This document shows, in pieces, positions 11,228-58,135 of a stretch of DNA of 64,000 nt. Position 1 is the stretch's first letter. The number at the start of each line of letters is the position of its first letter. The DNA comes from Methanobrevibacter sp. (GTDB lineage: Archaea > Methanobacteriota > Methanobacteria > Methanobacteriales > Methanobacteriaceae), in the NCBI GenBank assembly GCA_017407115.1, contig JAFQXD010000047.1, positions 1 through 64,000 on the forward strand. Direction: 5' to 3'. Position numbers and translations under genes: made by a program. The notes beneath the pieces were generated by a model, which searched no databases, was not told the origin of the DNA, and saw only the letters and a program-made list of their open reading frames with translations.

Positions 11228-11238
11228 GGGTGTTTAGT

Positions 11239-12129: not shown

Positions 12130-12147
12130 AAAATTGTAGGCGATATT

Positions 12148-12853: not shown

Positions 12854-14536
12854 CTATAATCTGTCCATTTCTTCAAATGGAATTAATTTTTCGATAGCTT
12901 TGACTTCGATATCTATTCCCTTTTCTTTTATTGCACCGATGGTGTTAAGTCCTCCACCGGCCACCACACCGAAGTTATAGTTATCTGCCTTTGCATTGTA
13001 TGTCACTTCTCTTGGTTTTCCTATTTTATATATTGAAAATCCTGTATTTTTTAGGATATCGAGAAGATGGACAGCATAATCACGGGCAATGTATGGAATT
13101 TCCTTAAAACTGGCCAATATCTTTTTTGTTCCGATATTTGCTGATATGGAAGTCATGTTTTTTGATATGAATATCTTATGAGGGTCTATTGTTGTACCAC
13201 TGTATGATATCAGGTCAATGAATAATGGGGGTTCTGTAAGTTCAAGCAATCCTCCATAAATCGGATTGCACATTATTCCGTTGTTTATTAAAAGCCCGTC
13301 AATACTTAAACTGCATATTGTAGCTATTCCTACCTTGTTTTCATCTGTAGGATGATCTAAAATCTTGTAGTATGGATTGATGTATTTCGGATTTGAATTA
13401 AATGTGTTCTCCATGATGGTCATTGCATCATCCAGTTTGGCCTTGTCGATATAGGAAACATTTGCTATTATGTCTCCTTTTCTTTTTTCCACATCAAAAT
13501 TGACCTGCTGGATTAGATTCCATGATTTTGAAAGTAAAAATGGTATTTTTGGGGTGACTATATTTCCCCTAGGCTTCAATGTAGGGTTAATTGTTGTCAC
13601 GATTGGGGATAGTGTATTGAAATCTCTGATTTCTTCAGCTATCTTGATGTCGATTTCCTCTCCCAATTCCTTGATTGCACAAAATGGAGTAATTCCTCCG
13701 ACAAGAGCTATTCCAACCATTCCATCGGGTACAGGTATTCCTAGAATGTCTTCTCCCTCTTGGGAAATGTCGATTAAACCGCCAATTCCGATGTCGTTTA
13801 ATTTTTTGAACAGTTCTATTGTTTTTGTCCTGCCTATTCCCGGTATGAGTCTGAAGTTTGCAGGAATTGTTCCGCTACCCTTGGTAATGACGTCCAGAAC
13901 TGAGGTTCTGTTGCTGTCTGAGAATGCATCAAGGGGTGTAATGGATGTCTTTTTGTAGGATATCAGTTCCGTAAAGGTTGTAGGTTGGAAATGTTCAATT
14001 TCAAGCAGCCCTCCATATATCGGTTGGGAAGGTATTCCCTCATTTAGAAGTATCCCGTCGATTGTTGTTCCGCATAATGTGGTCACTTCAATTTCATCCT
14101 TGTTTCTGACTCTGTTTAAATTAACGTAAGGACTTACAGAAAGACCACTTTCAAAAATTTCTTTCAGTATTTCAACCGATTCTTCATTATAAACAGTTGA
14201 TGTATTGACTACTACTTTCCCGCTTTGTGTCATATAGTTGAAGTCAGTCAAATAAATCATTTCTTCAAATTTTGAATGAATGAAATCAACCTGGTCGTAA
14301 ATCAGTCCTTTTTCTAATTTTTCACGACCCAGCTCAGTAATCTGTCTTCCGGAATATCCCATCCTTTCGGTATATCCTTTTTTGTCCAATATCTGCATAT
14401 GGTATCTGACTGCACGTTCGCCCAGATTGTAGCCCTTGTTTTTCAGTTCATCTGCTATCAGTTTGGAGCCTGTAGGCTTATCCTGTGCATTCAATATTCT
14501 TAAAATTTCCATCATACGGTGTTCGGATTCTGACAT
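12854..14536 (-). CDS. nrpR: Global nitrogen repressor NrpR
   Basis: 560-residue repressor of nitrogen-assimilation genes in euryarchaea; 2-oxoglutarate lowers its DNA binding. Residues 1-70 form a winged helix (SKLIADELKNKGYNLGERAV, then RYHMQILDKKGY). Two NrpR (DUF128) domains follow, about 85-310 and 325-555; both contain an S-[IL]-DG-[IL]-LIN-[EN]-G-I-type core, GGLLE-[IL] and a late VAGG/VGG loop. ATG 14536 is chosen over TTG 14542 because GAGG (14547-14544) is spaced for it. It lies 71 bases downstream of glnA, its expected target, and ends tail-to-tail with a DUF2097-like gene. Confidence 0.93.
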   Translation of the reverse strand: MSESEHRMMEILRILNAQDKPTGSKLIADELKNKGYNLGERAVRYHMQILDKKGYTERMGYSGRQITELGREKLEKGLIYDQVDFIHSKFEEMIYLTDFNYMTQSGKVVVNTSTVYNEESVEILKEIFESGLSVSPYVNLNRVRNKDEIEVTTLCGTTIDGILLNEGIPSQPIYGGLLEIEHFQPTTFTELISYKKTSITPLDAFSDSNRTSVLDVITKGSGTIPANFRLIPGIGRTKTIELFKKLNDIGIGGLIDISQEGEDILGIPVPDGMVGIALVGGITPFCAIKELGEEIDIKIAEEIRDFNTLSPIVTTINPTLKPRGNIVTPKIPFLLSKSWNLIQQVNFDVEKRKGDIIANVSYIDKAKLDDAMTIMENTFNSNPKYINPYYKILDHPTDENKVGIATICSLSIDGLLINNGIMCNPIYGGLLELTEPPLFIDLISYSGTTIDPHKIFISKNMTSISANIGTKKILASFKEIPYIARDYAVHLLDILKNTGFSIYKIGKPREVTYNAKADNYNFGVVAGGGLNTIGAIKEKGIDIEVKAIEKLIPFEEMDRL

Positions 14537-14607
14537 AAACAAGCCTCAATTCCAAATTTAACTATAATCCTATCATTAAATTTAAAATAAAAAATTAATA
14601 TTTAGAT

Positions 14608-15963
14608 TTAGATATCTAAATATTTTCTTTGTTCGTATCCAAATACTTGAACACGGTATTCGTCCCATTCTTGATATTTGAGCTCCAAGAATTTGGTACT
14701 GATGTGGTCGCCTAAAGCATTCAATATTAATGGGTCTTCTTCAAGGGAATGGTATGCTTCCCATAAGCTTGTAGGCAAAACTTTGATTCCCAATGCTTCC
14801 CTTTCCTCTTCACTCATGCTGTAGATGTCTGCTTCAATAGGTTCTCCAGGATCGATTTTGTTTTGGATACCGTCAATACCTGCTTCAAGCATTACTGCAA
14901 ATGCAAGGTATGGGTTACATGCAGGGTCAGGTGACCTGTATTCGATACGTGTAGCTTTTCCACGAGCTGCAGGAACTCTGATTAAAGCTGACCTGTTTTT
15001 AAGACCATATGCTCTGTATACTGGAGCTTCATAACCTGGAACTAAACGTTTGTATGAGTTCACAATTGGATTGGTGATTGCAGTTATTGCGGGAGCATGT
15101 TTTAAAAGCCCTCCCATAAAGTGGAGCGCATCTTTTGAAAGACCGGTTTCTGAATCAGGATCTGAGAACAGGTTTCTGTCTCCTTTGAATACGGACTGGT
15201 GACAGTGCATACCACTACCGTTGACTCCAAAGAACGGTTTTGGCATGAATGTTACTCTGTAATCCAACTGATCGAAAGTTGCCATATTATCTACAATAGC
15301 TTTAATAGCTTGTTTGAATGTTATTACTGCGTCTGCAGTCTTAAGAGCATCTTTAAATTTGAATGCGATTTCGTTTTGACCTGGAGCTACTTCGTGGTGG
15401 GAAGCTTCAACTTCAAAGTCAAGTTCTTCAAGGTTTAAGGTCAGTTCTCTTCTGAAATCAGGACCTTTGTCCAACGGTTCCACATCAAAGTATCCTGCTT
15501 CATCGTATGGCAGGGGATATCCGTTTTCGTCTATGTCCACGATAAAGAATTCAGGTTCAGGACCGATATTGTACTGCAATCCCATTTTTGCGATTTTTGC
15601 AAGGGATTTTTTAAGAACGCTTCTTGGGTCTCCAACGAAAGGTTCATGCTCAGGAGTCCATACGTCACAGATGAATCTGCATACTGCTGATTCTTCAGGT
15701 CTCCAGGATAATCTTGAGTAGGTGTTTATATCAGGTTTTAAAACAAGGTCACTTTCGTTGATTCCGACAAATCCTGCAATTGATGATCCGTCAAAGAGCA
15801 TTCCTTCACAAAATAACTCTTCCATATCTTCTTTATTGAATGGAATGACAATGTTTTTTACAGTTCCGTTAATGTCAACAAATTGCAAACGAATAAACTT
15901 GATATTGTCCTCTACCATCTGTTCAATTACTTTTTCCATTTTTTCTTCATTAATATCGCTCAT
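14608..15963 (-). CDS. glnA: Glutamine synthetase type I
   Basis: 451-residue enzyme making glutamine from glutamate, ammonia and ATP. Landmarks: [17 protein letters not shown], the ATP/Glu-binding [24 protein letters not shown], and R-I-E-Y-R-S-PDP. The bacterial adenylylation-loop Tyr motif is not obvious; the equivalent region reads [10 protein letters not shown], as in archaeal enzymes. I use ATG 15963; TTG 15972 lies only one base from the GGAG ribosome site and is unlikely. Two tandem NrpR operators overlap its promoter, and nrpR follows. Confidence 0.96.
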
Positions 15964-16011
15964 ATAATTCAAGCTCCAATTTTATGATAATATTGAGTTT
16001 AAAAAATAGTC

Positions 16012-16062
16012 GGAATATATATTCCTACCTTGGAAATATATCTCCTTATCATTGTATATAAA
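16012..16062 (-). promoter_or_regulatory. glnA promoter with tandem NrpR operators
   Basis: On the minus strand a BRE/TATA box TTTATATAC (16062-16054) is followed by GGAG-ATATAT-TTCC (16045-16032, one mismatch) and then GGAA-TATATA-TTCC (16025-16012, perfect match to the NrpR operator GGAA-N6-TTCC known from Methanococcus). The centres are 20 bp apart, two helical turns. The first site lies between TATA and the expected start point. Confidence 0.82.
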
Positions 16063-16221
16063 GGTTTTGAAAAAAATAGTAATTATTAGGTTTTATATGG
16101 ATTTTCATAGGTTAATGTCTATTATTTATTTATTTTAATGGATATGCTCCTATCAATTTTAATAATTTCTACTATTTTGTTTAAACAAGAATAAAAATAA
16201 AGGAAAAAGTTGACTTATTGT

Positions 16222-16962
16222 TTAGATTTCCTCGATTGAAAATGATGCAAGGTCCAGCAAATCAAAAGTCAATATTTTTGGGGCAACTGTCACTTTGCCG
16301 ATTCCGGTTATGATTTTATAGGCTTCCATAGCCTGCATACAGCTTACCATATTGGGTACAGGTCCAATAACTGGCGGTGCACCTGAAGTAACGTTTTTAA
16401 GTTCGTTTAAAACATCATCAGTGAGGTCCTTACCGCAGGAGGGAAGGGCGAACATTTCCTCATAGCTTTTGGTATTCGCCAGAAATACTGAAATCTGGCC
16501 CAATGTTCCATGGACTGCTCCATGTACAAATGGGATTTTTGCCTCATTTGCAAATCTTGACACTATTACTCTTGTCAGGACATTGTCAAGAGCATCAATA
16601 ACCAGATTTGAATCTCCGATAATTTTTTTAACGTTATTTTCATCCACATGTTCGCTGAATCGGGTTATTTTAACGTAAGGGTTTATGGATTTGACCTTTT
16701 TGGCTGCAACTTCACTTTTGTCCTTTCCGATGGTATCCACACTTGACAATGCTTGGCGGTTGAGGTTTGTATAGTCAAAGATGTCCTCGTCAACCAGTCT
16801 GATTTCACCGACGCCCATCCTTGCAAGCATTTCAATGGTCTGGCCTCCGATTCCTCCGCAGCCGATTACTGTGACTGTTGCATTTTTGAATTTTTCCTGC
16901 TCTTCTTTTGTCACCAAAGGCATTTGGCGGGTTATGATTTCCCAGTATCTATCATCTGGCAT
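16222..16962 (-). CDS. ThiF/MoeB/HesA-family adenylyltransferase (E1-like)
   Basis: 246 residues with the Rossmann ATP-binding motif GCGGIGG (about residue 34), VDEDIFDYTNLNRQ, and the D-A-L-D-N strand that in this family aligns with the nucleotide site. Members activate the C-terminus of a ubiquitin-like sulfur carrier. The paired CxxC zinc motif of MoeB is not evident; isolated Cys residues occur in PSCGKD and VSCMQ. No partner carrier protein is encoded nearby. It starts 8 bases after the aldo/keto reductase stop with AGGTGA, so the two are co-transcribed. The substrate pathway (molybdopterin, thiamine or tRNA thiolation) cannot be decided. Confidence 0.8.
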   Translation of the reverse strand: MPDDRYWEIITRQMPLVTKEEQEKFKNATVTVIGCGGIGGQTIEMLARMGVGEIRLVDEDIFDYTNLNRQALSSVDTIGKDKSEVAAKKVKSINPYVKITRFSEHVDENNVKKIIGDSNLVIDALDNVLTRVIVSRFANEAKIPFVHGAVHGTLGQISVFLANTKSYEEMFALPSCGKDLTDDVLNELKNVTSGAPPVIGPVPNMVSCMQAMEAYKIITGIGKVTVAPKILTFDLLDLASFSIEEI

Positions 16963-16970
16963 GTTTTCAC

Positions 16971-18137
16971 CTAGAAATGGTCAAATTCGCTTCCGAAGTA
17001 TTCGTATACTTTCTGAAGCTCTTCAGGAATATTCAACATTTGAGTACAGAACGGCAGACATTCCTTGCAGTCTATACAGCTGTCTGCCCTTGAGTCATCA
17101 TCAATCAGTGTGAAGTACTGCATTGCACTGGCTTTAGGATCATTCAGCATGTTTGCAATGTTGAACTCTGTCAGACAATTTATGATGTCCACTCCATGAG
17201 GGCAAGGCATGCAATATCCGCATCTGGTACAGCGGTTTCCGACAAATCCTCTGTATTCCCTTGAGACTTCTCTGATTATTTCCGCATCATAATCGCTGAT
17301 TTCATCGATTTTTGAAGCTATTTCAACATTTTCCTTAACCTGTTCGAGGCTTGTCATTCCGCTAAGGACACAATCAACATCATCCCTGTTCCATAAGTAC
17401 TGCAAAGCCCATTCAACAGGTGTCCTTTTGACTTCGGCCATGTCCCAAATTTTTTGCACTGATTCTGGAATGTTGTTGACAAGTCTGCCTCCCCTTAGAG
17501 GTTCCATAATCATGCTTCCAATATTTACGTCCTTGAGATAGTCAAGACCCATGATACCTGACTGATAGTATTCATCAAAGTAGTTCATTTGAGTTAGGAC
17601 CACTTCCCATTTAGGATATTCGTCGATGATTTCGATAAGATAATCCACTTCAAGGTGTGATGAGAATCCGACATGCTTGACTGCACCTGAGCTTAGGCAG
17701 TCATCCAGAAAGTCCAGAACATCAAAGTTTTTAACCTTTTCCCAGTCTGGAACGGTAAGTGAATGAAGCAGATAAATGTCTATATAATCGGTCTGGAGCT
17801 TTTCGAGCTGTTCGTCAAGATACATCTGAAAGTCGCCTTTGCTTTCAATTGCCCATGAAGGTGATTTTGTTGATAAAAATACTTCATCCCTATAGCTGTT
17901 TTCAGCCAAAAATTCGCCGACAAAACGTTCACTGTTTCCGCTGCCTTCCAAGGTTTTGCTGTGGTATGGATATGCAGTATCGATAAGGTTTATTCCGTTT
18001 TCAATTCCATATTCGAGCATTTTTGATGCTTCGGTGGTGTTAATTTCATCATTTGCATCAATTGTTGGAAGTCTCATTGTTCCAAAACCGAGTCTTGAAA
18101 CCTTCAGTCCGGTTTTTCCAAGTTCATTATATAACAT
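16971..18137 (-). CDS. Aldo/keto reductase with C-terminal 4Fe-4S motifs
   Basis: 388 residues. The N-terminal ~270 are an aldo/keto reductase TIM barrel (GFGTMRLP, LIDTAYPYH, the catalytic Lys in STKSPSW, and YLLHSL). The C-terminal ~110 hold ferredoxin-like cysteines, CTRCGYCMPCP and CIDCKECLPFC, seen in the predicted iron-sulfur oxidoreductases of this family. Substrate unknown. It has a GAGG ribosome site and forms an operon with the downstream ThiF-like gene. The tRNA-Met lies just upstream on the same strand. Confidence 0.87.
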   Translation of the reverse strand: MLYNELGKTGLKVSRLGFGTMRLPTIDANDEINTTEASKMLEYGIENGINLIDTAYPYHSKTLEGSGNSERFVGEFLAENSYRDEVFLSTKSPSWAIESKGDFQMYLDEQLEKLQTDYIDIYLLHSLTVPDWEKVKNFDVLDFLDDCLSSGAVKHVGFSSHLEVDYLIEIIDEYPKWEVVLTQMNYFDEYYQSGIMGLDYLKDVNIGSMIMEPLRGGRLVNNIPESVQKIWDMAEVKRTPVEWALQYLWNRDDVDCVLSGMTSLEQVKENVEIASKIDEISDYDAEIIREVSREYRGFVGNRCTRCGYCMPCPHGVDIINCLTEFNIANMLNDPKASAMQYFTLIDDDSRADSCIDCKECLPFCTQMLNIPEELQKVYEYFGSEFDHF

Positions 18138-18251
18138 TTCAAATCCTCAATAACTTAACATGAATATATTATTGATGAAACTATAAAATTGTTATGTCTG
18201 AAAAAAATTTTTTAAAAATAGTAGTTAGATGGAAATTCCTGGGATATAGGA

Positions 18252-18361
18252 TGCCGGGGGCGGGATTCGAACCCGCGATCTCACGGTATCCCAGGAATAA
18301 GTCAGAGCACTGCTTTATTACCCTATGAGCCGTGCGCTCTAACCAGCTGAGCCACCCCGGC
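18252..18361 (-). tRNA. tRNA-Met (CAU, elongator type) with 36-nt intron
   Basis: Read on the minus strand: acceptor GCCGGGG pairs with CCCCGGC, discriminator A73; D-stem GCTC/GAGC; T-arm GCGGG-TTCGAAT-CCCGC; anticodon stem CACGG/CCGTG. The loop is C-U-C-A-U-A, then a 36-base intron (18323-18288), then A38. Exon lengths are 38 and 36, total 74. The intron sits at the canonical 37/38 position and its ends can pair (TAATAA with TTATT), as needed for a bulge-helix-bulge. G1-C72 argues for elongator rather than initiator. No CCA is encoded. Confidence 0.93.
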
Positions 18362-18497
18362 ATCTAACAAATATATTTATTTTTATCATTACATTTAAAG
18401 TTTTTGTTTTTTTAACTTTTTTGGCTGTTTTTTCAAAATATTTAATAACTTTTAATTTCATAATTATATTATTGACAATTATAATGCTGATGATATT

Positions 18498-19748
18498 ATG
18501 AGTAAAGTTAAAGATATGTCACTTGCACCGGAAGGTGTTCGTAAAATTGAATGGGTTCAAAAACACATGCCTGTTTTGGAACACATTAAACAAGAGTATT
18601 TGGAAACCCAACCTTTCAAAGGAATCACAATCGGGTCCTGTTTGCACTTGGAGCCTAAAACCATCAATTTAGGTTTAACCTTGATGGCTGGTGGGGCTGA
18701 AGTAGCAATGACCGGATGCAATCCGCTTTCAACCCATGACGATGCGGTTGCAGGTGCGGCAGACTTAGGTCTGAACGTTTACGGTTGGAGAGAACAAGAC
18801 GATGAGGAATATTACCAGACAATCAACATGGTTTTGGACCACAAGCCGGACATCATCATCGATGACGGCGCAGACATGATTATGGTTTTACACAACGAAA
18901 GAAAAGAGTTGTTAAGCCACATCAAAGGAGCATGTGAAGAAACCACAACTGGTGTTCACAGATTGCAGGCAATGCATGCTGACGGTGCATTGAAATTCCC
19001 AGTAATCGCTGTAAACGATGCATACACCAAATACTTATTCGACAACAGATACGGTACCGGACAATCCAGTTTCGATGCAATCATGGGAACAACCAATATG
19101 GTAATTGCAGGTAAAACCGTAGTCGTATGCGGATACGGATGGTGCGGTCGTGGACTTGCACTCAGAGCAGCAGGTCTCGGTGCTGATGTAATTGTAACAG
19201 AAGTTGATCCAATTCGTGCATTGGAAGCAAGAATGGACGGATACCGCGTAATGACAATCAGAGAAGCAGTAAAACAGGCCGACTTGATTATCACTGTAAC
19301 AGGTAATGCTGATATTATCTGCGGTGATGACTTCAAATACATGAAAGACGGCTGTATGCTTGCAAACTCCGGACACTTCAACGTTGAAATCAACCGCCCA
19401 GACCTTGAAGCAATTTCAACCGAAGTTAAAGAAGTACGTGAAAGTATTGAAGAGTTCACCACCAAAGACGGCAGAAAAATATACCTTTTAGCTGACGGAA
19501 GATTAGTGAACTTATCCGCTGCACGTGGACAAGGACACCCTGCAGAAATCATGGACATGAGTTTTGCCGTACAGGCATTATCTGCAAAACACATTCTCGA
19601 AAACGATTTGCCTGTAGGAGTAACCAAAGCACCTGATGAAATCGACTATAATGTCGCTTCAATGAAATTGGATGCAATGGGTATTGAAATCGATTCATTA
19701 ACCGACAGCCAAAAAGCCTACTTGGCAAACTGGCAAGAAGGAACATAG
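18498..19748 (+). CDS. ahcY: Adenosylhomocysteinase family (S-adenosyl/S-inosyl-homocysteine hydrolase)
   Basis: 416-residue NAD-dependent hydrolase that removes the product of SAM methylations. Landmarks: GSCLHLEPKT, TGCNPLSTHDD, the NAD site VVCGYGWCGRG at about residues 210-220, EVDPIRALEA, NSGHFNVEI and the C-terminal ARGQGHPAEIMD. In methanogens (shown for Methanocaldococcus) the enzyme prefers S-inosylhomocysteine, so the exact substrate here is open. The start follows a weak site; TATA-like sequence lies at about 18460-18470. The stop codon is inside a hairpin terminator. Confidence 0.94.
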   Translation: MSKVKDMSLAPEGVRKIEWVQKHMPVLEHIKQEYLETQPFKGITIGSCLHLEPKTINLGLTLMAGGAEVAMTGCNPLSTHDDAVAGAADLGLNVYGWREQDDEEYYQTINMVLDHKPDIIIDDGADMIMVLHNERKELLSHIKGACEETTTGVHRLQAMHADGALKFPVIAVNDAYTKYLFDNRYGTGQSSFDAIMGTTNMVIAGKTVVVCGYGWCGRGLALRAAGLGADVIVTEVDPIRALEARMDGYRVMTIREAVKQADLIITVTGNADIICGDDFKYMKDGCMLANSGHFNVEINRPDLEAISTEVKEVRESIEEFTTKDGRKIYLLADGRLVNLSAARGQGHPAEIMDMSFAVQALSAKHILENDLPVGVTKAPDEIDYNVASMKLDAMGIEIDSLTDSQKAYLANWQEGT

Positions 19749-19772
19749 TTTTCCTTCTAAACTTATTTTTTT
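19736..19772 (+). terminator. Hairpin and T-tract ending ahcY
   Basis: AGAAGGAA (19736-19743) pairs with TTCCTTCT (19751-19758); the TAG stop is in the 7-base loop. A T-rich run follows and reaches the next start codon. Confidence 0.7.
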
Positions 19773-19773
19773 C

Positions 19774-20424
19774 ATGTCTTATTTTAGATACATTGACAAT
19801 GGTGAAGGTCCTACCAAACTGTTCATTGGTGGCATTCATGGAAACGAAGGTGTTACCTCTTTGAGATTCATTGAAAATATCGATGAGAGTGATTTATCGC
19901 CAGGACAGTTCTATTTTTATAATTTTGATAAAACTCCGTATATATCTACAATAAAAAAGGAATATTACGAATCTCCGATAGGTCAAAAGATTCTTGATTT
20001 GATTAAATACTTCGAGCCTGATTTTTACACTGAACTTCACTGCTACAACCTTAAAAACTACGATAAGCTGACTTCAATGGAGAGATATAGGAAAACAGGA
20101 ATTCCTCCATTGATTAAACTCGGAAATCATGTGCTTGTATCTTCAGTTTCTCCATTAATCAGAATGACTTATTTTTCAACCGAAACGGTATGCAAAACCT
20201 TGGAATTTCCATGCCTCGAGAAGCTGACTCCAGAGCTTATTGAAGAGTATGATTTTGATAAGAAACTGGCCATTGAAACCTATGAGAAATTGCTAAAACT
20301 TATTTTGAAATCTCCTTCCAGAAATCATTTTGAGGCTCAGATGTTGATTGATTATGCTCCTCAAGTTGATTTGGCTATGAAATATGCAGAAAAAGTATTT
20401 GGAAAGGATTTCCCGCCTTATTAG
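19774..20424 (+). CDS. DUF2119-like putative zinc hydrolase
   Basis: 216 residues. The N-terminal motif GGIHGNEG (His, Glu two residues later) and the later ELHCYN resemble the zinc-binding H-x2-E...H of the succinylglutamate desuccinylase/aspartoacylase group; I believe this is the methanogen family DUF2119. The substrate is unknown. The ATG comes directly after the T-tract of the ahcY terminator with no ribosome site, so it may be translated from a very short or leaderless transcript. No signal peptide. Adjacent to ahcY but the link is not established. Confidence 0.72.
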   Translation: MSYFRYIDNGEGPTKLFIGGIHGNEGVTSLRFIENIDESDLSPGQFYFYNFDKTPYISTIKKEYYESPIGQKILDLIKYFEPDFYTELHCYNLKNYDKLTSMERYRKTGIPPLIKLGNHVLVSSVSPLIRMTYFSTETVCKTLEFPCLEKLTPELIEEYDFDKKLAIETYEKLLKLILKSPSRNHFEAQMLIDYAPQVDLAMKYAEKVFGKDFPPY

Positions 20425-20640
20425 TTTTCCTTTTAGAAATGATTGAATATTGTTCAGATTATTTTTGTTTTTAATATTTTTTTTATAGCTAATCATTTTT
20501 TTGGTAAATGAAAAGGTTTAATTTACCAATTTATATATAATGAGATACAAAAATTTATTTAAGCATGGATTATGTCCAATTGGTGTAAAATTAATATTAC
20601 ATCGATTGATTTTTCTATAGAAAATGTTAAGGTCTTTAAA

Positions 20641-21117
20641 ATGAAGTTAAATAAGAATCTAGTGGGAAATATTGTGATTATGGTATCAATTCTGCTTGTT
20701 TTATCATGTTTTGCTTTAATAATGATTTCAGGACCTATGGGTATCGAAACTGTCAAATGGGAGGGTGACGGTTATACGTATATAATTACTTCAGATATGA
20801 AGTATCAGATGGATGAAAATACATTCAATGTTACCAGTCCCTACGAACCCAATAATTATATGATGAAAAAGACTAATGATCAGACCAATTTCAGGAAATA
20901 CTTCAAGAACTCACTTACAGATGCTTACAGTACTCCTAGAAATCTAACACATACGATTCTTGTAAATGGTCAGGAAAACTTTGCAGTCATTGTACCTACA
21001 GAGTCCTTTAAAACAACAGACCGTGGTTACGAGTTGAATGGAACTCCAGAAATTATTGAAATTCAGATGAAGGACAGCAGCGGAATAGCTTCCTTTATAC
21101 TTGGTAGTACTAGGTGA
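20641..21117 (+). CDS. Small membrane-anchored protein of unknown function
   Basis: 158 residues from ATG 20641, preceded by AAGG; a longer frame from 20572 has no ribosome site. Residues ~9-32 are one hydrophobic segment (GNIVIMVSILLVLSCFALIM), so the protein is anchored or exported with an extracytoplasmic C-terminal region of about 120 residues. That region is rich in Asn/Thr with YTYIITSDMKY and may be beta-structured. No family recognised. A TATA box TTTATATATAATG is at about 20530. The stop overlaps the ribosome site of the following TIR gene, so they form one operon. Confidence 0.7.
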   Translation: MKLNKNLVGNIVIMVSILLVLSCFALIMISGPMGIETVKWEGDGYTYIITSDMKYQMDENTFNVTSPYEPNNYMMKKTNDQTNFRKYFKNSLTDAYSTPRNLTHTILVNGQENFAVIVPTESFKTTDRGYELNGTPEIIEIQMKDSSGIASFILGSTR

Positions 21118-21121
21118 TAAT

Positions 21122-21931
21122 ATGGCACATGATGTTTTTATAAGTTATTCAACAAAAGACAAGGTCACGGCAGATGCAATTTGCCATATTCTTGAGGAAA
21201 ATGACATGAAATGTTGGATTGCACCAAGAAATATTTCTTCAGGCCAGCCCTATGCTGAAGAGATATTAAATGCTATTAAAACTACAAAAATTGTTGTTCT
21301 TGTGTTTTCATCTAATTCTCAGGCATCACAATTTGTTCAAAAGGAGATTAATTTATCATTTTCAAACGGTAAGCCTATCATATCTTTTGTAATCGATGAA
21401 TCATTGCCTCAAGGAGATTTAGAATTTTATTTAAAAACCAACCATTGGCTGGATGCATATCCTGAGCCTGAAGTGGTATTTTCTAAATTGGTAACTGATG
21501 CCTCCAGATTGATTGGGGATGAGAAGCACAATCCTATCATCGACAGTAATGTAATGGAAAAGGCCAGAAATGGTGAATTCAATCAGCCAAGCATAAAAAA
21601 TGAATGGAAATCATTTATTTTCCTTGCAACTCCATTATATCCAATTGCATTGATTTATATGGGACTTTCCGCAAAAATGAAAAAAATTACAATTCAAGGT
21701 GTTATTTGTATGATTCCTTTGCTGTTATTTTTAGTTTTATCATTCTATGGAGCATACATGGCAAGACAGCAGGCAATTGCAGCAGTTTTCGTAGTTATTT
21801 TATGGATTATTTCAGTTGCATATATTCTTGTTATCAGAAAAGATTATCTCTTTAGAAAATCCGTTATCAATAGTGTCAGTGACGATAAGGAGCTGTTTAC
21901 AGCTTTGATTGAAGAATATGCCAATGTGTAG
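21122..21931 (+). CDS. TIR-domain protein with three C-terminal membrane segments
   Basis: 269 residues. Residues ~1-140 are a TIR domain: HDVFISYSTKDK, CWIAPRNI, and the helix S-x-F-V-x2-E-I with the Glu that is catalytic in NAD-cleaving TIR proteins. After a linker come about three membrane segments (about residues 160-245). The domain is thus cytoplasmic and tethered. ATG 21122 is chosen (AGGTGAT overlapping the previous stop). It is followed 9 bases later by a second TIR gene. Such proteins could act in NAD+ depletion defence or in cell signalling; the sequence does not decide. Confidence 0.85.
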   Translation: MAHDVFISYSTKDKVTADAICHILEENDMKCWIAPRNISSGQPYAEEILNAIKTTKIVVLVFSSNSQASQFVQKEINLSFSNGKPIISFVIDESLPQGDLEFYLKTNHWLDAYPEPEVVFSKLVTDASRLIGDEKHNPIIDSNVMEKARNGEFNQPSIKNEWKSFIFLATPLYPIALIYMGLSAKMKKITIQGVICMIPLLLFLVLSFYGAYMARQQAIAAVFVVILWIISVAYILVIRKDYLFRKSVINSVSDDKELFTALIEEYANV

Positions 21932-21940
21932 GTGTTTGTT

Positions 21941-23323
21941 ATGCATGAAGTTTTTATTTCTTATGCTGATGGTGATGAAAAGGTTGCAGAAGATATATGT
22001 AACCTTTTTGAGAAAAACGGAAGTTCCTGTTGGTATAAAAAAAGAGATTATGGTGAAAATGACACGGTTTCAAAAATATCACAGGCGATTAGGGATTCAA
22101 ATCGTGTTGTTTTGGTTTATTCAGAAAATGCCAAGGACTCAAATTTCACCATAACGGAGATAGATATTGCGTTTTCTGAAGATCTTCCCATTTTGGTATT
22201 CAACATCGATGGCACACCTATTTCTCCTAAATTGCAATTTTATTTGGAAAATAAGCCATCAATCGATGCATATCCGGATACAGAAAAATATTATGGGGAA
22301 TTGTTGGAAGATTCAACTCAATTGGTTTCAATTACTAAAGAAGACCCTTCTAAAAACGATGTTTATATCTGTTATACAGAAGAGGATGATTTGACAGCCG
22401 ATGCAATCTGTCATGTGATGGAATCAAATGGAATGAAATGTTGGTTTAAAAAACGTGATTTTAAAGTCGGCGAATCAATTCAAAAAGTCAATAATGCAAT
22501 TAAGAGTTCTAAAAGTGTCGTTTTAGTTTATTCTGAAGATATTAAAAAGTCAAATTTTGTTAAAACAGAGCTTGAAATTGCTCATTCATCAGAAATTCCG
22601 ATTGTATGTTTTAAAATTGATGAGTTTCCGGCTGATGAATTCAAAAGTTTGAAGGATGCTCACTGGTTGGAAGCATTTCCAAATCCTGGAAAAATATTTA
22701 AGGACCTTGTAGGTGATGTTTCAAAAACCATTGGAAAGGATGTAGATGAGCCCGTAGTTTCAAAGGAATATGAGGATTTAAAAATAGACAAAAAACCTCA
22801 ACAAAAAGTTGAAGAGACAAAAGATGAAATTTCTGAAGATTTCGATGAGGATTATGGTGTCAGCAAAAGATTCAAGAAAATTGCCATAGGCGTTACTGCT
22901 GTTTTGGTTGTGATTTTGCTTGTGGTTTATCTGTCAAACTATATATTCCTTCCGGGGTTGACTGATGATAAATTAGTATTTTCCGATGGAGGGGTCAGTA
23001 TTGAGAATTCCAATTCATATTATGAGAATTATTTGGACATCAACGTCAGTGAAATGAAAGTTGGTTCAAAATATTCTCTTGAAGGATTTGTAGAATTTCC
23101 TCCTGATGATTTTGATGATTACTACGTAACGGTTGACTATGCAGACAGTTCGGGAGCAGTAGTAGATTCAACCAATACTCCGGTTAAGGATTTAACTAAA
23201 ACCAATGATGGAAAAATATTGCTGGTAAATCATGATGTCCTTCCGGATGTCACTACAATTTATGTAACAATATTCAATGCGAAAGGAGTACAAGTGTATT
23301 ATGACGTATTTACAGATTTATAA
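21941..23323 (+). CDS. Tandem TIR-TIR protein with one membrane span and outer domain
   Basis: 460 residues in receptor-like order. TIR 1 covers about 1-135 (HEVFISYADGDE, CWYKKRDY, SNFTITEID), TIR 2 about 140-275 (NDVYICYTEEDD, CWFKKRDF, SNFVKTELE). An acidic/lysine linker (~275-315), a single membrane segment (~320-345, VTAVLVVILLVVYLSNYIF) and a ~115-residue outer region rich in beta strands follow. Both TIR halves keep the Glu expected at the NADase site. ATG 21941 follows AGGTG that overlaps the previous stop. Same operon as the preceding TIR gene, and 47 bases before the secreted paralog array. Confidence 0.86.
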   Translation: MHEVFISYADGDEKVAEDICNLFEKNGSSCWYKKRDYGENDTVSKISQAIRDSNRVVLVYSENAKDSNFTITEIDIAFSEDLPILVFNIDGTPISPKLQFYLENKPSIDAYPDTEKYYGELLEDSTQLVSITKEDPSKNDVYICYTEEDDLTADAICHVMESNGMKCWFKKRDFKVGESIQKVNNAIKSSKSVVLVYSEDIKKSNFVKTELEIAHSSEIPIVCFKIDEFPADEFKSLKDAHWLEAFPNPGKIFKDLVGDVSKTIGKDVDEPVVSKEYEDLKIDKKPQQKVEETKDEISEDFDEDYGVSKRFKKIAIGVTAVLVVILLVVYLSNYIFLPGLTDDKLVFSDGGVSIENSNSYYENYLDINVSEMKVGSKYSLEGFVEFPPDDFDDYYVTVDYADSSGAVVDSTNTPVKDLTKTNDGKILLVNHDVLPDVTTIYVTIFNAKGVQVYYDVFTDL

Positions 23324-23370
23324 TGATATTCATAGTTTAAATTGTAAAATATATATTTAGAGGTGATTTT

Positions 23371-23841
23371 ATGAAGTATGGTAAAATAATTGGTATTTTA
23401 TTGGTTATTTGTGTGGCTATTACCTTTTTGGGTGTTGCCAGTGCCGCTGAAGTGGTTGTGAATGGTGAAAAATTTAACATTCCCGACAATTATGTAAAAA
23501 ATAATTCATCATCTTCCGTTAAAAAAACATCAACTGGAACAGAGGAACATGCGGTATATGATGGTGTTTCAGAGTACATAAGTATTGTTGTTACTTTATT
23601 TAATGCAGGCACTCCAAAAGTTCCAGAAGACCCACAGGCTGTAGATAAAACCATTAATGGGGTGTCCGGAAAATATGTTGAAAATTTCGCTGGAACAGGT
23701 AGTGAACAGTTTACATACATCAGCAATAATAAATTAGTAATAATTACTAAAGATGCAGATTCTAATGTGACTTTTGAGGACATTGTTATCAAATCTGCTG
23801 ATGAAGGAGGTTCAGGATCTTTATTTAATTTGTTTGGCTAG
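23371..23841 (+). CDS. Secreted small protein, paralog 1 of 5
   Basis: 156 residues with a signal peptide (KIIGILLVICVAITFLGVASA, cleavage near residue 25) and a ~115-residue mature domain. The conserved pattern is V-N-G-E-K-F-N-I-P, a T-G-T-[ED]-E turn, I-S-I-V-V, T-I-N-G-V-S-G-K-Y, [YI]-x-x-N-N-K-L-[VI], and F-E-D-I-V-I-K, ending in a Gly/Ser tail and LFNLFG. Family not recognised. AGGTGA precedes the ATG. First of five tandem copies behind the TIR genes, and it keeps the full tail and the 3' hairpin. Confidence 0.82.
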   Translation: MKYGKIIGILLVICVAITFLGVASAAEVVVNGEKFNIPDNYVKNNSSSSVKKTSTGTEEHAVYDGVSEYISIVVTLFNAGTPKVPEDPQAVDKTINGVSGKYVENFAGTGSEQFTYISNNKLVIITKDADSNVTFEDIVIKSADEGGSGSLFNLFG

Positions 23842-23869
23842 ATTTTTTTTAATCTGCCTTTTCTTTTTT
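23836..23869 (+). terminator. Terminator after secreted paralog 1
   Basis: GGCTAGATT (23836-23844) pairs, with one bulged T, with AATCTGCC (23851-23858); TTTTCTTTTTT follows. The TAG stop is inside the stem. The same block recurs after copies 3 and 5 and as a remnant after copy 2. Confidence 0.65.
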
Positions 23870-23950
23870 AAAGGAAATTCAACATGGTTCCTTCATAGAT
23901 GGATGATGTATTTATTAATTAATAATTTAGCTCTTGTTTGAGGCGATGTT

Positions 23951-24379
23951 ATGAAGCATGGTAAAATAATTGGGATTATTTTGATTGTTTGTTTGGCTAT
24001 TACCTTTTTGGGTGTGGCCAGCGCAGCCGAAGAAGTTGTGAATGGAGAGAAGTTTAACATTCCTGACAATTATGTAAAAAACGAGGATAACTCATATGTT
24101 AAAAAAACAGCTACCGGAACGGATGAAAATGCAGTATATAATTGCAATAATGACTTCATAAGTATTGTTGTCGTTGTGATTAATAAGGGTATTCCAAATA
24201 TTCCAGAAGATTCTGGGGCTGTAGATAAAACAATTAATGGGGTGTCAGGAAAATATGTTGAAAATTCCACAGACACAGGCAATGCAAAGTTTATTTATGT
24301 ACATGATAACAGATTGGTAACAATTGTCAAAAATCCAGATTCTAATGTGACTTTTGAGGATATTGTTATTAAATTCTGA
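23951..24379 (+). CDS. Secreted small protein, paralog 2 of 5 (tail lost)
   Basis: 142 residues; signal peptide nearly identical to copy 1 and the same mature domain (VVNGEKFNIPDNY, TINGVSGKY, FEDIVIKF). The frame stops right after the last strand, so the Gly/Ser-LFNLFG tail is missing. About 30 bases further on, AATTTTCTTGGCTAG remains as an untranslated remnant of the tail and terminator, showing a recent loss. AGGCGA ribosome site. Between copies 1 and 2 is about 110 bases with no other gene. Confidence 0.8.
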   Translation: MKHGKIIGIILIVCLAITFLGVASAAEEVVNGEKFNIPDNYVKNEDNSYVKKTATGTDENAVYNCNNDFISIVVVVINKGIPNIPEDSGAVDKTINGVSGKYVENSTDTGNAKFIYVHDNRLVTIVKNPDSNVTFEDIVIKF

Positions 24380-24494
24380 AGAATAGGGCATTAACTCATA
24401 AATTTTCTTGGCTAGATTTTTTTAAAGAAAAGTCTAATTAATGGATTTTAGTCTATTGAGTATTATTAATTTAAATATGTATTTGGGTGATATT

Positions 24495-24965
24495 ATGAAG
24501 TATGGTAAAATAATTGGCATTTTATTGGTTATTTGTGTGGCCATTACCTTTTTGGGTGTGGCCAGCGCTGCTGAAATTGTTGTAAATGGTGAGAAGTTCA
24601 ACCTTCCGGATGATTTTAAAAAAGACAATGAATCATCCACAGTTACAAAAACTTCCACCGGAACAGATGAAAATATAATATATGGAAATGGATTTGACTT
24701 TGTAACCTTTGCTATCAGTTCATTTAATTCAGGGTCTTCTCCAGCACTCCCAACAGGAGGCAATTATACAGATAAAACAATTAATGGCATAGATGGTAAA
24801 TATACGGTAGATGAATACGGCAATGAGGAGTTTGTTTATATCAACAATAATAAATTAATCATGATTTCATTAACTGCTGATAGTTCTTTGAGTTTCGAAA
24901 ACATCATTATCAAACCTGCTGCTAGTGAACAAGGTTCCGGATCCCCATTTAATTTGTTTGGCTAG
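24495..24965 (+). CDS. Secreted small protein, paralog 3 of 5
   Basis: 156 residues from ATG 24495 (GGTGA at 24486-24490); the longer frame from 24441 lacks a ribosome site and a proper signal peptide. Signal peptide and the mature domain as in copy 1 (IVVNGEKFNLPDDF, TINGIDGKY, NNNKLIMIS), with full GSGSPFNLFG tail. A terminator hairpin carries its stop codon. Confidence 0.82.
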   Translation: MKYGKIIGILLVICVAITFLGVASAAEIVVNGEKFNLPDDFKKDNESSTVTKTSTGTDENIIYGNGFDFVTFAISSFNSGSSPALPTGGNYTDKTINGIDGKYTVDEYGNEEFVYINNNKLIMISLTADSSLSFENIIIKPAASEQGSGSPFNLFG

Positions 24966-24992
24966 ATTTATTTAATCTGCCTTTTCTTTTTT
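24960..24992 (+). terminator. Terminator after secreted paralog 3
   Basis: GGCTAGATT (24960-24968), loop TATTT, AATCTGCC (24974-24981), then TTTTCTTTTTT. Near-copy of the block after paralog 1; the TAG stop is in the left arm. Confidence 0.65.
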
Positions 24993-25033
24993 AATGGAGT
25001 ATTTGCAATTTAGGCAATTTAAGAGTTGATATT

Positions 25034-25492
25034 ATGAAATACAGTAAACTAATAGGCATTATTTTGATTGTTTGTATCGCATTTACTTTTTTAGCAGTGG
25101 TTAGTGCATATGAAGTAACTGTGTGTGGAGACCAATTTAACATCCCTTACGGGTTTGAAAAAGATGATGCATACTCTACAGTTTCAAAAACTGCTATGGG
25201 AACACAAGAAAATGCAGTATTTACAAATGGTATAGATATTATATATATTGGGGTCAGTGTCATGAATAATGGTGGTGTTGTACTGCCAACTGGCGATAAT
25301 TATACAGATAAAACTGTTAATGGAGTTAGTGGAAAATATTATGAAGATGATACTGGCATTGGTTTTATTTATATCCATGGCAATAAATGTATAACCATTT
25401 CCTTCCCGAACGATTCCAATTCGACATTTGAGGAGATTGTTATCAAACCTCCTGAAGATGATTCTGGATCTCCATTTAATCTGTTCGGCTAA
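25034..25492 (+). CDS. Secreted small protein, paralog 4 of 5
   Basis: 152 residues; the most divergent copy. Signal peptide GIILIVCIAFTFLAVVSA, then YEVTVCGDQFNIPYGF, in which VNGEKF is replaced by VCGDQF. The tail DSGSPFNLFG is kept, but the stop is TAA and the terminator hairpin is gone. Only 24 bases separate it from copy 5, so these two are probably co-transcribed. A Cys pair (VCG..., NKCITI) is unusual for the family and could form a disulfide. Confidence 0.8.
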   Translation: MKYSKLIGIILIVCIAFTFLAVVSAYEVTVCGDQFNIPYGFEKDDAYSTVSKTAMGTQENAVFTNGIDIIYIGVSVMNNGGVVLPTGDNYTDKTVNGVSGKYYEDDTGIGFIYIHGNKCITISFPNDSNSTFEEIVIKPPEDDSGSPFNLFG

Positions 25493-25516
25493 ACTATTAA
25501 TTTTATAGGCGATACT

Positions 25517-25942
25517 ATGAAATACAGTAAACAAATTGGTATTATTTTGATTGTTTGCGTGGCTATTACATTTTTGGGGGTGGCCAGTGCTGCCGAAGAA
25601 GTGGTGAATGGGGTAAAGTTCAACATTCCTGATGGTTTTGTAAAAAATGAAGAGATGTCTTCCGTTTCAAAATCCACTTATGGAACTGATGAAATTGCAT
25701 TTTATGAAAATGGAGATGATTGCATATCTCTTACCATTAGTTCTTTAAACAGTGGCATTGCGGGGTTACCTCAAGATGATAAGTATGAAGACAAAAACAT
25801 TTCAGGCATTAATGGAAAATATTGCAGTGAAGAAGACGGCGAAGAGTTCATTTATGCTATTGATAATAAATCAATAACCATCTGGCTGCCTCATAACTGT
25901 ACTGTCTCTTTTGAAGACATTATTATTAATGAGGCTTCTTAA
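25517..25942 (+). CDS. Secreted small protein, paralog 5 of 5 (tail lost)
   Basis: 141 residues with signal peptide and mature domain (VVNGVKFNIPDGF, NISGINGKY, FEDIIIN). It stops at EAS, before the Gly/Ser-FNLFG tail. Downstream, TTTAATTTGTTGGCTAG differs from the intact tail of copy 1 by loss of one T, a frame-shifted relic that still carries the terminator. The ribosome site is AGGCGA. It is the last gene before the tnpB element. Confidence 0.8.
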   Translation: MKYSKQIGIILIVCVAITFLGVASAAEEVVNGVKFNIPDGFVKNEEMSSVSKSTYGTDEIAFYENGDDCISLTISSLNSGIAGLPQDDKYEDKNISGINGKYCSEEDGEEFIYAIDNKSITIWLPHNCTVSFEDIIINEAS

Positions 25943-25971
25943 GATGTACTAAATTCTCATTTTAATTTGTT

Positions 25972-26008
25972 GGCTAGATTTTTTTTAATTTGCCTTTTCT
26001 TTTTTTTA
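25972..26008 (+). terminator. Terminator relic after secreted paralog 5
   Basis: GGCTAGATT-TTTTTT-AATTTGCC (25972-25994) and a T-run to about 26008; same block as after copies 1 and 3, but the TAG in it is now out of frame and unused. Confidence 0.6.
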
Positions 26009-26028
26009 ATGAATTATTTACCTTAAAT

Positions 26029-26072
26029 GTGCAAGAATACCATGACTTCTTTAAGTCGTGGATGAATTGCAC
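26029..26072 (+). repeat. Subterminal left-end hairpin of the IS element
   Basis: Outer arms GTGCAA (26029-26034) and TTGCAC (26067-26072) enclose an inner 9-bp stem CCATGACTT-CTTT-AAGTCGTGG (26040-26061, one G-T pair). Foldable ends of this kind are recognised as single strands by IS200/IS605 TnpA. Confidence 0.6.
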
Positions 26073-26178
26073 AAAAAATGGCATTATTACTTTTCAAATG
26101 CTCTTACTAACTTTTAATATATGTATTATTAGTTAATATAATAGTGTATGATTTAATGAATGGTGGAGTTGTGTTTTT

Positions 26179-27414
26179 TTGAGGATTGTTAATAAAGGTT
26201 TGGTGGTTAGGTTGTATCCTGATGAATGTATGGTGCGTGAGTTTAATCAGAATATTGGTAATGCTCGTTTCACTTGGAATATGCTCTTGGAGGAATACCA
26301 AAAGACATATGAATTATTTAAACAACACGGATATAACCGTTTAAAGTGTAATATGACTACATTCAATACCATGTTGACTATGCTTAAAAAGTGGTATCCT
26401 TTTCTTTATTTAAGTGAATCCAGTAGCTTGCAGCAAGTTTATCGAGACCTACTGAACGCATTTAAAAAATTCTTCAATGAAGGAGCAGGTTTTCCATGTT
26501 TTAAATCAAAAAAACACCCTAAACAATCATTCAGAATACAAAACAATAATAATATTAAAATAAAAGATAATATTCTGGTTTTACCTAAAATCGGGAAAGT
26601 ATACTACCGGACCAGCAAAGAATACAAAAGATTATTGAATAGCAATGAGATTAAAATCAACAATGTCACCATTAAAAAATCAAATGGAAAATTCTATACT
26701 GTATTCAACATTGAAATGCCCGTAGAATCTTTTGAAAAAACATTCTTGAGCGTAGGGATCGATTTGGGATTAGAAACATTAGCCACCCTAAGTAACGAAC
26801 TAAAGATAACCAATTTTGACCTAACTTACGAGGAAAAAATGATTAAAAAATACCAACGAATACTCTCAAGAAAAAACTATGATAGCAATCGATACCGAAA
26901 AGTCCAAAAAACCTACTGGAAATGGATAGACAAAAAAAATAACAAAATAAAAGACGCATACCACAAACTAAGCCACTACCTAACTAAAGTCTATGATATA
27001 ATATGTATGGAAGACTTAGACATCAAAGAAATGTTTCAAGACTCTGATTTAAGCAGTAAACTACAAAGAATTGGCTTAGCCTCTTTAGTGGACAAAATCA
27101 AGTACAAAGCGGAATGGTATGATAAAGTTTTCATTCAAATCAGCAGGTGGTTTCCATCAAGCAAAAATTGCCATAACTGCGGATACTACAACAAAAATCT
27201 CAAAAGAGATGAACGAGAATGGACTTGCCCAGAATGCGGCACACACCATGACCGGGACGCGAATGCTGCAAAAAACATACAAATGGAAGGTTTGAGAATC
27301 TATCATGAAAATTTAGTGAACCTCAGGGACTGGGGGGATAGCACGGTAATCCTAGAAGCATTAGCATCTACAGTCCGTGAAGTAAGAATCCTAGAGCTCT
27401 ACAGCTCGAGGTAG
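26179..27414 (+). CDS. tnpB: TnpB, RNA-guided nuclease of IS605 family
   Basis: 411 residues. All three RuvC acidic residues are present: Asp in GIDLG (about 195), Glu in CMEDLDI (about 277), Asp in DRDANAAKNI (about 357), and a zinc ribbon CHNCG...CPECG lies between the last two. Known TnpB proteins use a right-end-derived omega RNA to cut DNA next to a short target-adjacent motif. The start is TTG 26179 with GGTGGAG upstream. The ORF is undamaged, so the protein may be active. Its 3' end overlaps the presumed omega-RNA scaffold. Confidence 0.9.
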   Translation: MRIVNKGLVVRLYPDECMVREFNQNIGNARFTWNMLLEEYQKTYELFKQHGYNRLKCNMTTFNTMLTMLKKWYPFLYLSESSSLQQVYRDLLNAFKKFFNEGAGFPCFKSKKHPKQSFRIQNNNNIKIKDNILVLPKIGKVYYRTSKEYKRLLNSNEIKINNVTIKKSNGKFYTVFNIEMPVESFEKTFLSVGIDLGLETLATLSNELKITNFDLTYEEKMIKKYQRILSRKNYDSNRYRKVQKTYWKWIDKKNNKIKDAYHKLSHYLTKVYDIICMEDLDIKEMFQDSDLSSKLQRIGLASLVDKIKYKAEWYDKVFIQISRWFPSSKNCHNCGYYNKNLKRDEREWTCPECGTHHDRDANAAKNIQMEGLRIYHENLVNLRDWGDSTVILEALASTVREVRILELYSSR

Positions 27415-56992: not shown

Positions 56993-57637
56993 TTAAAGCA
57001 CTTCAATTTCATCAAAAAGGTCTGGATTTGTGGTATAGACTGTGATTATTTTATTGTTATTTACAAAGGTGAATGAATATGTGTTGTCATCCACATTGTA
57101 ATAACCGTCATAGCCCATCATTGTTTTTTGTTCTCCGCCCATTTCCTCTGCAAGCCCTTCGGCATCGGAAGTGCCTGATTCAGCGTATGTAACATCAATT
57201 GAAATTGCATCCTCATAGTTTTCCCAATATTTTGAGACATAAATGAGTCCGTTATCGTTTTCATTAACCCTTGCAATTTCATCTTCTGCAAAATCCTCAG
57301 GTATGCTGAAAGTGAACTCATCCACCTGATATTCCTGACTTCCTGTCGGAGAAAGCATCATCATCGCTCCTGCGGTAACTAGAGATATTGCTGCAATGAC
57401 TGCAAATACAATAATTGCAGTTTTGTGCTTGTCAGCAAAACTCTCCTTTTCTTTTTTGGGTTCTATAAGTCTTATTCCACAATTTTTGCAGAAATACTCA
57501 TCTTTTTGAATTTCCTCACCGCAGTTGTGGCAGAATTTGGCTTGGGATTTGGCCCCATCGATTTTCCTTCCGCAATCGGGACAGATATCCTCGCCGTCCT
57601 GGATGTATGCCGCACAGTTTTTACAGAATTTTGCCAA
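56993..57637 (-). CDS. Double zinc-ribbon, membrane-anchored protein with the secreted-paralog domain
   Basis: 214 residues from TTG 57637; AGGTGA is spaced for it and overlaps the alternative GTG 57646. Two zinc ribbons (CKNCAAYI...CPDCG; CHNCGEEI...CKNCG) occupy ~1-60, then a membrane segment (~75-98, IIVFAVIAAISLVTAGAMMML), then a ~110-residue outer domain. That domain matches the five secreted paralogs: F-T-F-S-I-P-E-D-F, ISI-x-V-T, M-G-Y-D-G-Y-Y, FTFVNNNKIITV and FDEIEV. The TIR gene directly upstream on the same strand repeats the TIR association. Confidence 0.78.
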   Translation of the reverse strand: MAKFCKNCAAYIQDGEDICPDCGRKIDGAKSQAKFCHNCGEEIQKDEYFCKNCGIRLIEPKKEKESFADKHKTAIIVFAVIAAISLVTAGAMMMLSPTGSQEYQVDEFTFSIPEDFAEDEIARVNENDNGLIYVSKYWENYEDAISIDVTYAESGTSDAEGLAEEMGGEQKTMMGYDGYYNVDDNTYSFTFVNNNKIITVYTTNPDLFDEIEVL

Positions 57638-57685
57638 TTGTCTCACCTAGAGTTAATATTATTTGATTTTTGCTTAAATATGTTT

Positions 57686-58135
57686 TTAGTGTGATATTGC
57701 CCGAAGTACTGCATCAACCAAAATTTCATATGCTTCCTCAGACGGAGGGCACGCAACTATCCAATTAAGACTTGTGAGGTAGCGTTCCATTTCATCGTCT
57801 GGAAATGATCCGTCGATGTTGAATGCAATGATTGGCATTTTTTCTTTAAATGCCATTCTGATTTCCTGAGCTACATATTTGGATTTGCATGCATTCATGG
57901 AGTATATTAAAACGTCAGCTTTTGAATTTTTAAGTGCACCGGCGATTTGAGTGGTGAAGCTTTCACCCGCCAGAAGGTCTCTTGGTGCAATCCAACATTT
58001 GACGCCGTTTTCTTCTAGAATGTAACGTACTTTGTCCGCTTCGGTGTGGTCCTTGCTTGAATAGGAGATGAATACATCATATTTCTTATCATTGCTTTTG
58101 GCGGATTTTTTGAATATTTTGTCAAGAATGCTCAT
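57686..58135 (-). CDS. TIR-domain protein (single domain)
   Basis: 149 residues; an N-terminal basic stretch (KIFKKSAKSNDKK) then one TIR domain: YDVFISYSSKDH, CWIAPRDL, and SKYVAQEIRMAF with the Glu expected for NADase-type TIR. No membrane segment. It is closest in motif style to the TIR domain of the gene at 21122 (same CWIAPR). It precedes the zinc-ribbon gene by about 48 bases on the minus strand and lies divergent from the large adhesin. Confidence 0.85.
   Translation of the reverse strand: MSILDKIFKKSAKSNDKKYDVFISYSSKDHTEADKVRYILEENGVKCWIAPRDLLAGESFTTQIAGALKNSKADVLIYSMNACKSKYVAQEIRMAFKEKMPIIAFNIDGSFPDDEMERYLTSLNWIVACPPSEEAYEILVDAVLRAISH

What the first reader, a model, noticed from the sequence alone, without database searches (positions are those of the whole stretch)
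20641..25942. TIR cluster with five secreted paralogs: candidate undescribed membrane sensing or defence module
A small anchored protein, a TIR-3TM protein and a TIR-TIR-TM-ectodomain protein form a tight operon (stop/ribosome-site overlaps) directly before five tandem exported proteins of one family. TIR domains keep the helix Glu found in NAD-cleaving TIRs. Tethered TIRs with an outer domain next to a secreted ligand-like family suggest signal recognition at the membrane, by analogy with TIR immune receptors. The role is inference.
Basis: partly seen in the sequence, partly recalled or inferred. Interest (0 to 1): 0.72.

Follow-up and report, generated by a model that had tools for sequence, protein, structure and literature searches.

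The report
Membrane TIR operon with surface-protein partners
Gut methane-producing archaea carry a conserved three-gene set of membrane-anchored TIR (immune-type signalling) proteins that repeatedly sits beside cell-surface protein genes, which makes it a plausible, still untested, system for watching the outside of the cell.

Summary
Window 20641-25942 carries a one-TM protein (orfA), a TIR-multiTM protein (TIR1), a TIR-TIR-TM-ectodomain protein (TIR2), then five exported paralogues (S1-S5). orfA-TIR1-TIR2 is a real conserved unit: 18 loci examined, same order and strand, gene gaps of -29 to +27 bp. It occurs in 10 of 67 genomes of the genus and in two genomes of a sister genus. Within the genus, orfA occurs in exactly the genomes that carry full-length TIR1. 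The putative catalytic Glu is invariant in 15 of 15 TIR1s.

The 'secreted ligand family' reading needs correction. S proteins occur in 59 of 67 genomes, mostly away from TIR genes. They accompany only one TIR1 clade (S downstream in three loci, fused as TIR-TIR-TM-S in one). The other clade lies beside a DUF11-TM protein and/or adhesin-like surface proteins. In this genome all three S loci sit directly behind TIR genes, including a zinc-ribbon-TM-S gene next to a second TIR gene at 57 kb.

No ThsA (STALD) effector, cyclase or defence-gene neighbours were found, so it is not Thoeris, CBASS or Pycsar on this evidence. Best explanation: a membrane TIR complex monitoring the cell envelope, with NAD-based output inferred. 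Defence is possible but unshown.

The parts
20641..21117 (+). orfA: 158 aa, N-terminal TM (about 3-36) plus an outer domain of about 120 aa, PsbP-like at low confidence
   Evidence: no Pfam; same genomes as TIR1 within the genus; pLDDT 86, pTM 0.71; PsbP/CyanoP prob up to 0.96, E 0.01-0.1
21122..21931 (+). TIR1: N-terminal TIR domain (5-113) plus multi-TM C-terminal region; E75 in the NADase Glu position
   Evidence: (E75 invariant in 15 of 15)
21941..23323 (+). TIR2: TIR-TIR-TM(310-341)-ectodomain of about 110 aa
23371..23841 (+). S1: exported S-domain protein
   Evidence: (pLDDT 92)
23951..24379 (+). S2: exported S-domain protein (C-terminal tail lost)
24495..24965 (+). S3: exported S-domain protein
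25034..25492 (+). S4: exported S-domain protein
25517..25942 (+). S5: exported S-domain protein (C-terminal tail lost)
57686..58135 (-). second TIR locus: 149 aa TIR-only protein, Glu kept (YVAQE)
56993..57646 (-). double zinc ribbon - TM - S-domain protein, 39 bp downstream of the second TIR gene

Best explanation
orfA, TIR1 and TIR2 form one membrane complex. orfA and TIR2 place small domains outside the membrane; TIR1 and TIR2 place TIR domains inside. The outer domains respond to the state of exported envelope proteins encoded next door (S proteins in one clade; DUF11-TM and adhesin-like proteins in the other). Disturbance of these, for example by virus adsorption or wall damage, brings the TIR domains together. 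TIR1, with TIR2 as partner or regulator, then cleaves NAD+ and gives a nucleotide signal or growth arrest. Shown: gene order, co-occurrence, architecture, Glu conservation, clade-specific linkage to exported proteins, an S-TIR fusion. Inferred: complex formation, ligand, NAD cleavage, outcome.
For: Conserved core with 4-bp start/stop overlaps between orfA and TIR1 in most loci. orfA and full-length TIR1 in the same 10 of 67 genus genomes. Glu invariant in 15 of 15 TIR1s. TIR2 has N-terminal TIR, one TM and a C-terminal ectodomain. S directly downstream of TIR genes at 3 of 3 S loci in the own genome (chance about 1.6e-7 if placed at random) and at G060:C22; TIR-TIR-TM-S fusion in G060:C12. The other TIR1 clade lies within 5 kb of lectin-like-domain adhesin-like proteins at 5 of 8 loci (P about 9e-6 if such genes were unclustered) and of DUF11-TM proteins. 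Partner type follows the TIR1 tree (100/100). A Methanobrevibacter TIR, TcpO, is reported as a NADase (PMC10937652) making v-cADPR, with Glu-dependent effects in plants (PMC10022894).
Against: No binding, complex or activity data. Surface-protein genes may cluster in these genomes, so the linkage P values are too optimistic. TIR2 of the C29 paralogue has Asp in both Glu positions and G060:C34 in one, so TIR2 is not always an enzyme. G060:C34 TIR2 lacks the ectodomain, and the G060:C16 and G028:C98 loci show no surface neighbours. No known nucleotide-receptor effector (STALD) in the own genome. Fold matches of orfA and S are weak (E 0.01 or worse).
Confidence: 0.45

Rival explanations
1. The TIR proteins are membrane scaffolds that assemble or regulate surface proteins (adhesion, pseudomurein anchoring, quality control). 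They act by protein contacts, not by NAD cleavage and not in defence.
For: Linkage to surface proteins, not to defence genes. Asp replaces Glu in some TIR2 domains. Many TIR domains act in signalling complexes rather than as enzymes (survey PMC7075850, abstract).
Against: Glu is invariant in all 15 TIR1s, together with the CWIAPR motif, which a pure scaffold need not keep.
Confidence: 0.25
2. A conventional intracellular anti-virus TIR system anchored at the membrane. Surface genes lie nearby only because both occupy variable genome regions.
For: Patchy distribution (10 of 67 genomes; five core loci in G060), duplications, and partial hits of the TIR domains to retron-TIR, SAVED-TIR and ThsB models.
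Against: Partner type follows the TIR1 tree; S is fused to TIR; the window, C29 and most clade-A loci lie among housekeeping genes rather than defence islands; STALD effector absent.
Confidence: 0.17
3. The S array is an unrelated secreted family that happened to expand downstream of a TIR operon.
For: S family in 59 of 67 genomes, mostly unlinked; T-rich tracts between S genes suggest separate transcripts.
Against: All three S loci of this genome and two loci of G060 are TIR-linked, one by fusion.
Confidence: 0.13

Closest known systems
TcpO of Methanobrevibacter olleyae (341 aa archaeal TIR NADase; PMC10937652, PMC10022894)
   Same: TIR protein of the same genus name; Glu-dependent effect in plants; NADase, v-cADPR producer
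   Different: Operon context and membrane architecture of TcpO are not given in the passages read; its sequence was not compared here
Thoeris (ThsB TIR + ThsA)
   Same: ThsB_TIR Pfam model above cut-off in TIR1 and TIR2
   Different: No STALD-type ThsA in this genome or in 66 of 67 genus genomes; these TIRs are membrane-bound, TIR2 with an ectodomain
Toll-like receptors
   Same: Ectodomain - one TM - TIR logic; TIR-STING and TLR1/2/6 TIR domains are among the best solved sequence matches
   Different: Reversed order (TIR N-terminal, ectodomain C-terminal), no LRR, small ectodomain; analogy only
Bacterial TIR-TM-C-terminal-domain proteins (e.g. Bacteroidales L129, Lentisphaeria L131)
   Same: Very similar TIR subfamily (CWIAPRDI), N-terminal TIR then TM then a large C-terminal part
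   Different: Single genes, no orfA and no TIR1-type TM region recognised next to them, different C-terminal domains
RseB/MucB periplasmic stress sensors and PsbP-like domains
   Same: Weak fold resemblance of S (RseB prob 0.99, E 0.035) and orfA (PsbP prob up to 0.96, E 0.01-0.1)
   Different: TM-scores about 0.3-0.43 only; no significant sequence match; cannot be called members

Membership tests
TIR domain family | TIR_2/TIR profile above curated cut-off | tested here: met
   72 bits (TIR1), 114 bits (TIR2), cut-off 28
TIR NADases | Glu in the catalytic helix position | tested here: met
   15 of 15 TIR1; window TIR2 both domains; paralogue C29 TIR2 has Asp instead
TIR NADases | NAD+ cleavage | not testable with these tools
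   needs a protein assay
Thoeris | ThsA effector (SLOG/STALD) in the genome | tested here: not met
   none in G000 (92.9% complete); one of 67 genomes (G032) has it
CBASS / Pycsar TIR effectors | nucleotide cyclase gene next to the TIR gene | tested here: inconclusive
   no cyclase recognised among neighbouring ORFs, but neighbours were mostly read by eye and Pfam was run on a subset only
Toll-like receptors | outer LRR domain, TM, C-terminal TIR | tested here: not met
   TIR N-terminal, no LRR
DUF4367 (S domain) | Pfam PF14285 above cut-off | tested here: not met
   S5 19.2 bits against 22.1
PsbP/RseB-type fold (orfA, S) | confident structural match | tested here: inconclusive
   no match at E <= 0.001, TM-scores about 0.3-0.43
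Known PADLOC defence systems | full-length match of operon proteins to a defence model | tested here: not met
   partial hits of the TIR domains only; none for orfA or S

The most novel reading that the evidence does not exclude
An archaeal outside-in TIR receptor complex (orfA-TIR1-TIR2) that reads the state of dedicated cell-surface proteins and answers with a TIR enzymatic signal: a functional, independently arranged counterpart of TIR receptor signalling, with clade-specific swapping of the extracellular partner.
Probability: 0.33. Interest if true: 0.82.

Novelty: new variant of a known kind. Interest (0 to 1): 0.56.

Why it matters
To my knowledge, nearly all prokaryotic TIR systems with known function sense an infection inside the cell. 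A conserved TIR operon with outward-facing domains, linked to surface proteins in rumen and gut methanogens, would show TIR signalling across a membrane in archaea. It would also give a concrete handle on how these methane producers respond to viruses or to damage of their pseudomurein envelope.

Tried and rejected
S as the obligate ligand of the TIRs: rejected by 59 of 67 genomes and mostly unlinked copies. Common ancestry of orfA and S: profile comparison gives only 64% over the signal and first strand, so not claimed. Positive selection on S1-S5: dN/dS 0.2-0.65 in the mature part, no sign of it, though the signal part is much better conserved. Phage origin: no S relative confirmed in viral contigs and only two TIR relatives, matching TIR1 residues 1-186 and 3-75. 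Thoeris: no STALD effector. The TIR-beta-helix protein of G060:C33 looked like a TIR-adhesin fusion but has no TM or signal, so it is probably cytosolic and not used as evidence. C119 copy of the locus: 100% identical over 15.8 kb, so treated as assembly redundancy, not as a second locus. Literature: no paper found that joins TIR genes with adhesin-like proteins in methanogens, and none on a type III Thoeris.

Full report
Observation. orfA (158 aa) has an N-terminal TM and an outer domain. TIR1 has an N-terminal TIR and a multi-TM region. TIR2 has two TIR domains, one TM (310-341) and a C-terminal ectodomain of about 110 aa. S1-S5 have a signal or anchor segment and one small domain. Gaps inside the TIR part are 4 and 9 bp. 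S1 follows after 47 bp, and T-rich tracts follow S1, S2, S3 and S5, so S1-S5 may be separate transcripts. The genome is a 2.96 Mb draft of 121 contigs. Close relatives found by name are Methanobrevibacter MAGs, several from ruminants, so the source is most likely a gut or rumen Methanobrevibacter (inference).

Conserved core. TIR searches found paralogous clusters in the same genome: C29 (orfA-TIR1-TIR2-S, with TIR1, TIR2 and S overlapping at their ends) and C105 (orfA-TIR1-TIR2 with a single TIR in TIR2, then a DUF11-TM protein and a 2209-aa adhesin-like protein). C119 is a 100% copy of window 11161-26970 and is treated as assembly redundancy. Across 67 genomes of the genus, full-length TIR1 is in 10, and orfA is in exactly those 10. 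Outside the genus, a search of 152 genomes of the phylum found full-length TIR1 only in two genomes of one further genus, both with orfA. One of these has a single contig of 2,937,203 bp, which I take from memory to be M. ruminantium M1 (inference). In all 18 loci examined the order is orfA, TIR1, TIR2 on one strand, with gaps of -29 to +27 bp, most often a 4-bp overlap between orfA and TIR1. The Glu that is catalytic in TIR NADases is invariant in 15 of 15 TIR1s. It is kept in both window TIR2 domains but replaced by Asp in both TIR2 domains of C29 and in one of G060:C34. TIR1 therefore looks like the conserved enzyme candidate and TIR2 like a partner that can lose the residue.

Partners. The S family is not tied to TIR genes in general: it is found in 59 of 67 genomes, mostly alone, in three architectures: exported S, zinc ribbon-TM-S, and TIR-TIR-TM-S. 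Yet in the window's genome every S locus found is directly behind a TIR gene: the S1-S5 array, C29, and the zinc ribbon-TM-S gene at 56993-57646, 39 bp behind a TIR-only gene at 57686-58135. The chance of three of three is about 1.6e-7 if loci were placed at random; the profile was built from these S proteins, so remote S copies may have been missed. In G060 one TIR1 locus has S 23 bp downstream, and another has S fused to TIR-TIR-TM plus a free S gene upstream of orfA. The other TIR1 clade has DUF11-TM proteins and/or giant adhesin-like proteins (with papain-type C1 and lectin-like, beta-helix or Ig-like domains) next to the operon. Lectin-like-domain adhesins lie within 5 kb at 5 of 8 testable loci (P about 9e-6 without clustering; such genes may cluster, so the true value is weaker). 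A tree of 18 TIR1s separates S-linked and adhesin-linked loci with 100/100 support. So the common theme is an exported or surface-anchored partner that differs by clade.

Folds. S1 is predicted with high confidence (pLDDT 92, pTM 0.83), orfA with fair confidence (86, 0.71). Foldseek against PDB gives only weak matches: RseB/MucB stress-sensor proteins for S (prob 0.99 but E 0.035), PsbP/CyanoP for orfA (prob up to 0.96, E 0.01-0.1), and the immunity protein Tsi3 for both. These are leads, not assignments. Profile comparison does not join orfA and S.

Mechanism. The architecture (cytosolic TIRs, TM segments, outer domains), the tight operon, the strict pairing of orfA with TIR1 and the clade-specific exported neighbours fit best with a membrane complex that watches envelope proteins and signals through TIR1. 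NAD+ cleavage is inferred from the kept Glu and from TcpO, a Methanobrevibacter olleyae TIR reported as a NADase (PMC10937652) and v-cADPR producer (PMC10022894); whether TcpO belongs to this family was not tested. Whether the trigger is a virus or wall damage is open. No Thoeris effector (STALD) is in the genome, no cyclase was recognised nearby, and PADLOC and NCBIfam models match only the TIR domains. The TIR subfamily itself is common in bacteria, often as TIR-TM-large C-terminal domain single genes, so membrane TIRs with outer parts are a known kind; the three-gene unit with orfA and partner swapping is, as far as I could search, undescribed.

Verdict. Observation confirmed; interpretation partly supported. 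It is a conserved membrane TIR module with surface partners. The secreted family is one clade's partner rather than the defining one, and the defence role remains a hypothesis.

Noticed in passing
56993-58135 (-): Second TIR locus in the window: TIR-only gene followed after 39 bp by a double zinc ribbon-TM-S-domain gene; an Ig-like surface protein (58475-61699) lies divergently beside it.
   Followed up: partly
26179-27414 (+): IS605-type TnpB directly downstream of S5; contig C119 ends inside it and its last 15.8 kb are a 100% copy of window 11161-26970 (assembly redundancy).
   Followed up: partly
L075:3225-5702 (G060:C33) and L035 (G043:C228): TIR followed by beta-helix/Chlam_PMP-like repeats without signal or TM: possibly a cytosolic TIR with an adhesin-like repeat domain.
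   Followed up: partly
L061:8164-11966 (G060:C11): Two adjacent proteins of 615 and 639 aa, each with about four TIR-like domains in tandem.
   Followed up: no
L068, L070, L072, L074, L076-L081: A second widespread layout: two adjacent genes, each TIR followed by a TM-type C-terminal half with ectodomain, without orfA.
   Followed up: no
L036, L037, L039, L040: Stand-alone membrane proteins of about 140 aa resembling the TM region of TIR1, in genomes without TIR1; the two tested match no Pfam family.
   Followed up: partly
50852-54097 (+): Two tandem exported proteins of one family (585 and 492 aa): Ig-like repeats plus a C-terminal domain that looks glycosidase-like by eye.
   Followed up: no
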